From positions 1 through 64,000 of the forward strand of contig NZ_LYBV02000009.1 in assembly GCF_001660705.2 (NCBI RefSeq): 64,000 bases of DNA. The letters run 5' to 3'. Shown piece after piece: positions 62,197-64,000 of the stretch; positions within the stretch are counted from its first letter, which is position 1; every line of letters begins with the position of its first letter. Position numbers and translations under genes: made by a program. The stretch is from Saccharicrinis aurantiacus. Lineage in GTDB: Bacteria; Bacteroidota; Bacteroidia; Bacteroidales; Marinilabiliaceae. The notes under the pieces are model-generated. The model did not search any database. It worked only from the letters and a program-made list of their open reading frames with translations, and had not been told where the DNA came from.

Positions 62197-62284
62197 AATA
62201 CAAATTTGCTTTTTCTAGTAATGTTCTTATTTTTATAAGAGCTAATAAACTAGAAGTTTAATGGTGGCGTTATTGTTTTAATAA

Positions 62285-62316
62285 TTGAAGTTCGCTTTAT
62301 AAAAAAGGTGTCTTTG
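62285..62316 (+). promoter_or_regulatory. Candidate promoter of HHH protein gene
   Basis: A TTG and a TGTCTTTG (one mismatch to TAnnTTTG) are separated by 21 bp; the start codon lies 54 bp downstream. Confidence 0.35.
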
Positions 62317-62369
62317 CTTATTAAAATGATAGCGCTTACTTTTTTTAAGCTCTCGTTAAAACCTAATCT

Positions 62370-63212
62370 ATGTTTGATAAACTGCTTTTATATACCCGGT
62401 CGCAACAAAGGGGTATTATAGTTCTTGTGGGTCTTATTATTATACTATTGATAGTAAGGGGTCTTTTGCCATCATATTTCGAATTTATTTACAAAAAAGA
62501 AGTAACTGAATACGAAAGGTACTTCATTGCGCTTAATGATTCGCTTAATGATTCGCTTAAGGAACAGCGCGATCGACCTCTACAATTGTTTAGTTTTGAT
62601 CCTAACCTTATTTCTAAGGAGGACTTAATGAAATTGGGTTTTAATTCATATCAAACCAAAAATCTTTTATCTTATCGTAAAGCAGGTGGTAGTTTCAAAA
62701 AAACAACTGACCTAAAAAAGATTTATGGTGTTGATAGTACTCTGTATAATAAAATTTCACCTTATGTTAGGATAGTGCAGGCCCCTAAAGTTGAGACTAA
62801 GTTTATACCTAATAAGAAAAGTAAGCTAAATATTAATAAGGCAACTTACAGTGATCTTGTTAAGGTAAATGACCTTGGTTCAAAATTGGCATCTCGTATA
62901 ATTAATTTTCGTAAAGCCCTTGGTGGTTTTTATGATATGAAACAGATTGATGAGGTTTATGGAATTAATAAACAGCTTTGCGTGGCGATTAAAGTTGAGT
63001 TTTATGCTTCGCAGAAAGATATACGTAAAATAGACTTGTCTGAGTATAATATAACCATGTTAGCCAAGCATGCATATCTCAACAGAAAACAAGCAGAAAA
63101 AGTATTGAAATTGTACGAAAAATATAAGGATAGTGGCGAAATATCTGAATTTTATAAACAATTGACAGGAAGTGGGTTGGGTAAAATAATTCCTTATATA
63201 GTAGCTTGGTAG
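62370..63212 (+). CDS. Membrane-anchored helix-hairpin-helix protein
   Basis: A 280-residue protein with one N-terminal helix (about 15-34) followed by ComEA-like helix-hairpin-helix domains: residues about 80-135 (LGFNSYQTKNLLSYRKAGGSF) and 150-210 (LNINKATYSDLVKVNDLGSKLASRIINFRKALGGF), with a weaker third at the end. ComEA binds double-stranded DNA during uptake; here the anchor would hold the DNA-binding part on the periplasmic side. Its role in DNA uptake is inference, since no other competence genes are in the window. Confidence 0.8.
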   Translation: MFDKLLLYTRSQQRGIIVLVGLIIILLIVRGLLPSYFEFIYKKEVTEYERYFIALNDSLNDSLKEQRDRPLQLFSFDPNLISKEDLMKLGFNSYQTKNLLSYRKAGGSFKKTTDLKKIYGVDSTLYNKISPYVRIVQAPKVETKFIPNKKSKLNINKATYSDLVKVNDLGSKLASRIINFRKALGGFYDMKQIDEVYGINKQLCVAIKVEFYASQKDIRKIDLSEYNITMLAKHAYLNRKQAEKVLKLYEKYKDSGEISEFYKQLTGSGLGKIIPYIVAW

Positions 63213-63281
63213 TATGTTGTGAATTAGTGCATTATGATTAGGTTTGTTAAGTTTAGATGTAAAAAGAATTCGTAAAGTTTG

Positions 63282-63309
63282 TTGACGTGAAAAAACTTTG
63301 CTTTCTTTG
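63282..63309 (+). promoter_or_regulatory. Candidate promoter of rpsU
   Basis: TTG and TTTCTTTG separated by 17 bp, about 107 bp before the rpsU ATG. The -7 box differs from TAnnTTTG at the second base and the spacer is 2 bp short, so this is tentative. Confidence 0.3.
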
Positions 63310-63403
63310 CACCTGCAAATAATCAACAAATGTACTGTTATGTACTCGGAAGTTTCTGATTATTTGAGATTTAAGTAATAAAATTTAGAGAAAATAAAAA
63401 ATC

Positions 63404-63410
63404 AAAGGAG
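63404..63410 (+). promoter_or_regulatory. Strong Shine-Dalgarno sequence of rpsU
   Basis: AAAGGAG lies 6 bp before the rpsU ATG, complementary to the 3' end of 16S rRNA. No other start inspected in this window has one; most are preceded by A-rich sequence. This is expected if rpsU is specifically translated by ribosomes lacking bS21. Confidence 0.8.
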
Positions 63411-63416
63411 ATAGTT

Positions 63417-63608
63417 ATGATTGTTATTCCAATTAAAGAAGGCGAAAACATCGAGAGAGCATTAAAAAAATTCAAAAGAAAATTTGAGAAAACTGGAGCG
63501 ATGAGATCTTTGCGTTCACGTCAAGCTTTCACTAAACCTTCTGTTAAAAGAAGAGAAGAGGTTAAAAAAGCTATTTACATACAGCAATTACAACAAAACG
63601 AGGATTAA
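63417..63608 (+). CDS. rpsU: Ribosomal protein bS21
   Basis: A 63-residue basic protein: MIVIPIKEGENIERALKKF then a Lys/Arg-rich helix with SLRSRQAF and VKRREEVKKA. In Bacteroidota bS21, together with bS18 and bS6, covers the anti-Shine-Dalgarno sequence of 16S rRNA, so most mRNAs initiate without it. The strong Shine-Dalgarno before rpsU itself fits the autogenous model reported for Flavobacterium johnsoniae, in which ribosomes short of bS21 expose the sequence and translate rpsU. It precedes a tyrosine recombinase gene by 71 bp. Confidence 0.95.
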   Translation: MIVIPIKEGENIERALKKFKRKFEKTGAMRSLRSRQAFTKPSVKRREEVKKAIYIQQLQQNED

Positions 63609-63618
63609 ATTAAATTCT

Positions 63619-63678
63619 TAAGGTCAATAGTGTAAAATTTGTTATATTCGTTTAAACGAATAGCTCCAATTGACCTTA
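63619..63678. repeat. Nested palindromes between rpsU and recombinase
   Basis: TAAGGTCAAT and ATTGACCTTA are perfect 10-bp inverted arms 40 bp apart. Inside lies the perfect 18-bp palindrome TATTCGTTTAAACGAATA (63645-63662). The outer arm ends one base before the recombinase ATG. In RNA this would fold as two stacked hairpins; as DNA the inner part is a typical protein-binding dyad. Confidence 0.65.
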
Positions 63679-63679
63679 C

Positions 63680-64000
63680 ATGATTTTAATAGAATCTTTT
63701 ATAAAATATTTAGAGTTCGAGAAGCGCAGTTCTGAACATACAATTGCTTCATATAGCTGTGATCTCGAACAATTTATTCTTTTTGCTAAGCAGAAAGATG
63801 TAACTCATGTGTCTGATGTCAATCGCAAACTAGTTCGTAGTTGGGTTGTTTATTTGGTAGGTGAGGGTATGGCACCGAAAAGTGTAGGTCGTAAAATAAC
63901 ATCACTTAAATCATACTTCAATTATCTTATGCGTGAAGGATTTGTCGAAATTAATCCGGCAAAAGACATAAGTACTCCAAAAATTCCAAAAAAAATTCCA
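63680..64000 (+). CDS. Tyrosine recombinase, partial (XerC/XerD-like)
   Basis: The first 107 codons of a gene cut by the window end. It encodes a SAM-like core-binding domain: FIKYLEFEKRSSEHTIASYSCDLEQFILFA, then SVGRKITSLKSYFNYLMREG and NPAKDISTPK, the standard N-terminal half of XerC/XerD recombinases. The catalytic Arg-His-Arg-Tyr half lies beyond the window. By position next to rpsU, this is probably the chromosomal Xer enzyme of Bacteroidota. The nested palindromes reach to its start codon. Confidence 0.85.
   Translation, partial: MILIESFIKYLEFEKRSSEHTIASYSCDLEQFILFAKQKDVTHVSDVNRKLVRSWVVYLVGEGMAPKSVGRKITSLKSYFNYLMREGFVEINPAKDISTPKIPKKIP

What the first reader, a model, noticed from the sequence alone, without database searches (positions are those of the whole stretch)
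63404..63610. Strong Shine-Dalgarno only at rpsU, fitting bS21 autoregulation
AAAGGAG lies 6 bp before the rpsU ATG. The other starts I checked (leuS, fba, nrfH, lpxC/fabZ, xer) are A-rich without such a motif. Established work on Bacteroidota ribosomes shows bS21, bS18 and bS6 hide the anti-Shine-Dalgarno, and bS21-deficient ribosomes were reported to regain use of it in Flavobacterium johnsoniae. The sequence therefore suggests an intact rpsU feedback loop in this lineage.
Basis: partly seen in the sequence, partly recalled or inferred. Interest (0 to 1): 0.72.

Follow-up and report, generated by a model that had tools for sequence, protein, structure and literature searches.

The report
Modest, lineage-specific rpsU ribosome-binding site
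The gene for ribosomal protein bS21 in this Bacteroidales genome does have a ribosome-binding motif, but it is short, not unique and missing in most relatives examined, so it does not by itself show the published bS21 feedback loop; the search instead turned up a related bacterial family where that loop's signature is strong, and an energy-pump gene with an unexpected conserved motif.

Summary
The motif is real: AAAGGAG at 63404-63410, 6 nt before the rpsU ATG, pairing 7 bp with the 16S tail of congeners (own 16S not assembled). "Only at rpsU" holds inside the window but fails in the genome: in a 1.04 Mb sample 20 of 745 genes equal or beat its duplex energy (mock windows 8), including rplF, rplE, rplI and rpsR. 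Its energy (-7.1 contiguous, -9.2 duplexfold) is far from the published < -13 criterion. In 60 genomes of its family an rpsU Shine-Dalgarno (SD) this strong occurs in 5 (4 of 9 in the genus), while rpsR has one in 51 of 53 and rplI in 47 of 53. So the conserved SD genes here are rpsR-rplI, not rpsU. By-products: another Bacteroidales family has AAGGAGGT before rpsU in 71 of 99 genomes, although the published survey found no qualifying Bacteroidales; and in the window's family rnfC starts with GTG in 23 of 25 loci read, 18 of 25 with an SD, in a class thought SD-blind. Function is inferred from sequence only.

The parts
63404..63410 (+). Shine-Dalgarno-like AAAGGAG of rpsU, complementary to 16S tail CUCCUUU
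   Evidence: position; 16S tail of congeners; contiguous -7.1, duplexfold -9.2 kcal/mol
63411..63416 (+). 6-nt spacer between the motif and the start codon
63417..63608 (+). rpsU, ribosomal protein bS21, 63 aa, Tyr54 present
   Evidence: (PF01165)
63318..63403 (+). A+T-rich stretch upstream of rpsU; fold of 63318-63450 no better than shuffled sequence (z -0.37); no Rfam match over a gathering score in 62200-64000
62370..63212 (+). upstream neighbour, helix-hairpin-helix protein
   Evidence: PF12836
63680..64000 (+). downstream neighbour with the N-terminal domain of phage-type integrases (tyrosine recombinase), cut by the window end; no SD-like motif before its ATG by eye
   Evidence: PF02899

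Best explanation
AAAGGAG before rpsU is a real but modest SD. In this family the conserved SD genes among those examined are rpsR (bS18), rplI, rplF and rnfC, and rpsU has acquired or kept a 7-bp SD only in part of one genus. Shown: the motif, its complementarity to the congeners' 16S tail, its rank in the sample, its patchy conservation. Inferred: on ribosomes whose 16S tail is freed (lacking bS21 or bS18) the 7-bp pairing gives a small boost to bS21 synthesis, while SD-type feedback in this lineage, if any, acts mainly at rpsR.
For: Motif and 16S tail. 20 of 745 sampled genes equal or beat it; among 31 genes of the S10/spc/alpha and rpsF-rpsR-rplI clusters (27 of them r-protein genes by my reading of their sequences) four have a stronger duplex (rplE -12.5, rplF -12.1, rplI -10.3, rpsR -9.3 against -9.2), and by contiguous helix two are stronger (rplF -10.4, rplI -8.5) with rpsR equal. 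Family survey: rpsU 5 of 60, rpsR 51 of 53, rplI 47 of 53 at -7 or better. The 25 nt before rpsR contain AAGGAG in 51 of 53 genomes; in the own genome this lies in the last codons of rpsF, while AAGGAG spells only 147 of 1676 Lys-Glu pairs in its sampled genes, pointing to selection on the RNA. rplF: 28 of 30 at -6 or better, while its neighbours rpsH 0 of 30 and rplR 4 of 30. Contig lengths: G051 and G022 equal the Labilibacter records.
Against: No expression data. Gene starts in the sample were called by my own coding score, not a curated annotation, some of the strong-SD genes may be miscalled, and 1.04 of 5.88 Mb was sampled. The motif occurs in 4 of 9 genus genomes at the same spacing, so selection on rpsU is possible, and its contiguous energy equals that of the conserved rpsR site.
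Confidence: 0.62

Rival explanations
1. Intact F. johnsoniae-type loop: bS21-free ribosomes regain SD pairing and specifically translate rpsU, raising bS21 until the 16S tail is hidden again. (The explanations here are not mutually exclusive, so confidences need not sum to 1.)
For: Tyr54 kept in 60 of 60 family bS21; canonical anti-SD in congeners; a 7-nt SD (AGGAGGU) sufficed for a response on a tuf reporter in F. johnsoniae (McNutt 2023, section read).
Against: Energy about -7 to -9 rather than < -13; not the top r-protein gene; an SD this strong is absent in 55 of 60 family genomes.
Confidence: 0.2
2. Chance: A-rich leaders are one or two changes from AAAGGAG and the motif has no role.
For: G022 and G032 lie one base away from AAAGGAG, and G048 and G054 show a 4-nt gap at this place in the alignment; 4 of 745 mock windows hold an equal helix.
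Against: About 0.5% per gene by the mock windows, yet present in 4 of 9 congeners at the same spacing, in a gene where such motifs are regulatory in a sister order. Congeners are not independent.
Confidence: 0.15
3. General operon re-initiation: SDs in this family serve mostly internal operon genes (rpsR, rplI, rplF, rnfC, rnfE), helping ribosomes restart after the gene before; rpsU is incidental.
For: Those genes lie inside runs of same-strand genes; of 12 sampled genes with a helix of -7 or better at 4-12 nt, the SD falls in or within 10 nt of the end of an upstream same-strand gene in 5. rnfA also has an SD at -6 or better in 9 of 27.
Against: Equally internal genes lack it: rnfD 0 of 28, rnfG 2 of 27, rpsH 0 of 30. 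rpsU has no close upstream gene (204 nt gap).
Confidence: 0.2

Closest known systems
bS21 (rpsU) autoregulation by bS21-lacking ribosomes, Flavobacterium johnsoniae (McNutt et al. 2023, PMC9976891)
   Same: Same gene, an SD before it, canonical anti-SD in the lineage, Tyr54 of bS21 kept
   Different: There rpsU pairs over 9 to 13 bp (-14 to -21 kcal/mol) and is the one exceptional SD gene of the genome; here 7 bp, not the strongest, patchy within the genus
SD at rpsR (bS18) in Bacteroidales (Jha et al. 2021; not held, known here only through sections of McNutt 2023 and passages of PMC8710568)
   Same: rpsR SD in 51 of 53 family genomes, rplI in 47 of 53
   Different: No difference was found in what I tested; this is the pattern that the window's lineage follows
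Extended rpsU SD of Flavobacteriales, Sphingobacteriales, part of Chitinophagales and Cytophagales, and Chlorobia (McNutt 2023)
   Same: A family (f9) of the window's GTDB order shows it: AAGGAGGT before rpsU in 71 of 99 genomes
   Different: McNutt 2023 report no Bacteroidales meeting their criteria; the window's own family did not meet them either (rpsU 0 of 60 at -13)

Membership tests
F. johnsoniae-type rpsU autoregulation | rpsU pairing energy below -13 kcal/mol (9 or more bp) | tested here: not met
   -7.1 contiguous, -9.2 duplexfold, 7 bp
F. johnsoniae-type rpsU autoregulation | rpsU is the strongest SD among ribosomal protein genes | tested here: not met
   fifth by duplexfold after rplE, rplF, rplI and rpsR, among 31 cluster genes plus rpsU; r-protein genes outside the two clusters, and those under 80 aa apart from rpsU, were not scored
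F. johnsoniae-type rpsU autoregulation | complementary anti-SD in 16S rRNA | tested here: met
   in the 3 of 9 genus genomes that gave a 16S, all 7 copies; none found in the own assembly
F. johnsoniae-type rpsU autoregulation | Tyr54 of bS21 that helps to hold the 16S tail | tested here: met
   60 of 60 family genomes and 80 of 80 named loci
F. johnsoniae-type rpsU autoregulation | tail-binding residues of bS18 and bS6 | not tested
   the paper listing them was not held
F. johnsoniae-type rpsU autoregulation | bS21-lacking ribosomes initiate faster on rpsU mRNA | not testable with these tools
   needs experiment
Bacteroidales pattern with SD at rpsR | strong SD before rpsR conserved in the lineage | tested here: met
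   51 of 53 genomes at -7 or better, contiguous; the other 7 of 60 gave no rpsR match
Extended rpsU SD in GTDB family f9 (another family of the same order) | rpsU pairing below -13 kcal/mol | tested here: met
   30 of 30 scored f9 loci, all selected because they hold the pattern, at -14.7 to -16.5 with the Labilibacter tail; 28 of 99 f9 genomes do not hold the pattern
Extended rpsU SD in GTDB family f9 (another family of the same order) | rpsU is the strongest SD among ribosomal protein genes | tested here: inconclusive
   in 11 of 11 named genomes with such an SD rpsU beats rpsR, rplI and rpsF; other r-protein genes not compared, and the tie of these named genomes to f9 rests on equal leader strings for some

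The most novel reading that the evidence does not exclude
In an SD-blind family a small conserved SD set (rpsR, rplI, rplF, rnfC with a GTG start, perhaps rnfE and, seen in the own genome only, rplW; in part of one genus rpsU) forms a regulon read preferentially by ribosomes whose platform proteins bS21 or bS18 are missing, so that the state of 30S assembly sets both platform-protein supply and production of the Rnf ion pump. In a sister Bacteroidales family control sits instead mainly on rpsU with a 10 to 13 bp SD.
Probability: 0.12. Interest if true: 0.8.

Novelty: new variant of a known kind. Interest (0 to 1): 0.42.

Why it matters
It shows that an SD at rpsU cannot be read as the bS21 loop without a genome-wide and family-wide check. 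The check itself yields two testable points: the extended rpsU SD does occur in the order Bacteroidales, in most sampled genomes of one family (71 of 99), where the published survey of complete genomes reports none; and a metabolic gene (rnfC) keeps a GTG start, mostly with an SD, in a class whose ribosomes hide their anti-SD. Reporters of rnfC and rpsR in bS21-depleted cells would show whether specialised ribosomes reach beyond their own protein.

Tried and rejected
Leader RNA structure at rpsU: fold no better than shuffles (z -0.37). Rfam on 62200-64000: two matches, both under their gathering scores (U2-like at 63610-63768, E 0.049; rivX-like, E 0.16), taken as chance. rplE as a conserved SD gene: its GGAGG lies in the conserved end of the upstream rplX gene (SGEEIK by my reading), so protein coding may explain it; not counted as evidence for selection. 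rnfE likewise overlaps the end of rnfG. Naming the GTDB family f9: its leader strings equal those of named loci L061, L068, L069, L088, L095, L096 and L098, whose NCBI labels are Prevotellaceae, Bacteroidales or Bacteroidetes bacterium; a literature search for a name that I recalled as a candidate (UBA932, listing only) could not tie it to these genomes, so no name is claimed. An early regular-expression scan of family loci caught only 20 of 30 and was replaced. One rpsF row (L047) is a script artefact and was ignored. One search ended with a script error after printing its results; the spacing count meant for it was made.

Full report
What was claimed.

The motif. AAAGGAG is at 63404-63410 and the ATG at 63417. 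The 63-aa ORF is ribosomal protein S21. No 16S was found in the genome's own 69 contigs, but 3 of 9 genus genomes (own included in the 9) gave seven 16S copies, all reading GGAACACCTCCTTTCT at the 3' end. The motif pairs 7 bp with that tail: -7.1 kcal/mol as a contiguous helix (nearest-neighbour values recalled, initiation included), -9.2 with ViennaRNA duplexfold. With the same function a 13-bp match gives -20.9 and the 9-bp AAAGGAGGU -12.1, near the published -14 to -21 for 9 to 13 bp; my scale may be 1-2 kcal/mol milder.

Is it the only one? I sampled 61 stretches (1,042,612 bases, window included) of the 5.88 Mb genome and called 748 genes by a codon score, 745 with enough upstream sequence; rpsU itself is below the 80-aa limit and was scored apart. 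Weak pairings are rarer than in mock windows (85 against 118 at -4 or better), as described for Flavobacteriales, but strong ones exceed mock (21 against 8 at -9 or better). At spacing 4 to 12 nt and -7 or better (contiguous) there are 12 against 2. 20 of 745 match or beat rpsU by duplex, 13 by contiguous helix (mock 8 and 4). The strongest is a CDP-alcohol phosphatidyltransferase gene (AAAGGAGGTG, -14.7); others are rplF, rplI, rpsR, rnfC and rnfE; a few listed genes may have miscalled starts.

Is it conserved? All 60 sampled genomes of the GTDB family have bS21. I read the rpsU start of all 60, and the rpsR and rplI starts of the 53 genomes with an rpsR match. At -7 or better, contiguous: rpsU 5 of 60 (G000, G038, G044, G051 of the genus and G016 outside it), rpsR 51 of 53, rplI 47 of 53 (53 of 53 at -5). 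No contiguous helix reaches -13 at any of the three; by duplexfold ten rpsR sites read -13.4. In the genus the rpsU site varies by substitutions and gaps next to a well-kept start. G051 and G022 have the contig lengths of Labilibacter sediminis and L. marinus records, so the named loci of these species (L032 with the motif, L033 without) are not independent of the survey; other family genomes match Marinilabilia, Carboxylicivirga, Natronoflexus and Alkaliflexus records in the same way.

How it most likely works. bS21, bS18 and bS6 hide the 16S tail in Bacteroidia (McNutt 2023, introduction read). In this family the SD that has been kept sits before rpsR: in the own genome inside the last rpsF codons, spelled AAG-GAG although only 147 of 1676 Lys-Glu pairs in its sampled genes use that spelling; the 25 nt before rpsR hold AAGGAG in 51 of 53 genomes. 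So SD-type feedback, if any, is most likely centred on bS18. The rpsU site is a modest addition in part of one genus. This is inference; no expression was measured.

Where the evidence led, first. The pattern AAGGAGGT followed within 3 to 14 nt by an rpsU-like ATG start was sought in 393 genomes of the order: 6 hits, namely 5 of 5 sampled members of one family (f9) and 1 of 5 of another (f41); the reversed control pattern matched in none. In 99 genomes of f9 (GTG starts allowed too), 71 have it, in 21 of 25 genera, control 0; 28 do not. The 30 f9 loci fetched (chosen because they matched) score -14.7 to -16.5 with the Labilibacter tail, and all have Tyr54. The single-contig f9 genome G305 has the tail CACCTCCTTTTT in its three 16S copies, and its rpsU leader AAAAAGGAGGTGT then matches 13 bp (-18.4), a hint of covariation with the 16S from one genome; 16S was found in no other of the 5 f9 genomes searched. 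In 11 of 80 named rpsU loci the helix is at -13 or better, and in all 11 rpsU beats rpsR, rplI and rpsF of the same genome, though rpsR also has an SD in them (-5.2 to -12.1). McNutt 2023 state that no members of Bacteroidales met their two criteria; their set held complete genomes only, and the order here is that of GTDB. Not all r-protein genes of f9 were compared.

Where the evidence led, second. 31 family genomes were searched for rnfD; 28 full-length loci were fetched and rnfC could be read in 25. It begins with GTG in 23 of 25; in each of these an in-frame stop lies upstream, no other start codon lies between, and no in-frame ATG occurs before codon 25, while 722 of 745 called genes of the own genome start with ATG. 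18 of 25 have an SD helix at -6 or better (17 at -7), with GGAGG ending 7 nt before the start in 17 and 8 nt in one. Against strict dependence: five GTG rnfC genes (L331, L336, L339, L340, L343) lack the SD. In the three genus loci the SD lies in the end of rnfB, and probably in L329; in at least six others (L321, L324, L325, L328, L338, L342) the likely rnfB frame, as I read it, ends 38 or more nt before the start and the SD keeps its spacing, which speaks for selection on the RNA. rnfD has none in 28, rnfG 2 of 27, rnfA 9 of 27, rnfE 21 of 27. A search for papers holding Shine-Dalgarno, Bacteroidetes and rnfC found none in the held library; that does not prove absence elsewhere.

Limits. Starts were called by script; mock windows differ in context from leaders; related genomes are not independent; energies are for 37 C; most gene names in the clusters are my reading of the sequences. 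Of the literature, McNutt 2023 was read in abstract, introduction, part of the methods, three results sections and the first part of the discussion; PMC8710568 and PMC10783764 as passages; the rest as listings; Jha 2021 not at all.

Verdict. The motif is real and modest; the exclusivity is wrong at genome scale; the loop is possible but not indicated. Interest comes from the by-products more than from the given site.

Noticed in passing
GTDB family f9, e.g. L282-L286, L293-L317; named loci L061, L068, L069, L078, L088, L095, L096, L098, L100, L103, L105: Extended SD AAAGGAGGTG(T) before rpsU in Bacteroidales: AAGGAGGT pattern in 71 of 99 f9 genomes, against the published statement that no Bacteroidales qualify.
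   Followed up: partly
L123:4623-5954 (own genome, rnfC) and L318-L345: rnfC starts with GTG in 23 of 25 family loci read, 18 of 25 with an SD helix at -6 or better, GGAGG mostly 7 nt upstream.
   Followed up: partly
L176:5961-6587: Strongest contiguous SD in the sample (AAAGGAGGTG, 4 nt spacing) before a CDP-alcohol phosphatidyltransferase gene, overlapping the gene before it.
   Followed up: no
G305 rpsU leader (L282) and its 16S loci L287, L290, L292: The 16S tail reads CTCCTTTTT instead of CTCCTTTCT and the rpsU leader has the matching extra A's, a possible covariation.
   Followed up: no
window about 63297-63312 and genus loci L024, L180-L186: A conserved TTTAGTTTCTTTG-like block about 105-120 nt before the rpsU start in the genus; it resembles a Bacteroidota promoter element (recalled consensus), which would give a leader of about 100 nt.
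   Followed up: no
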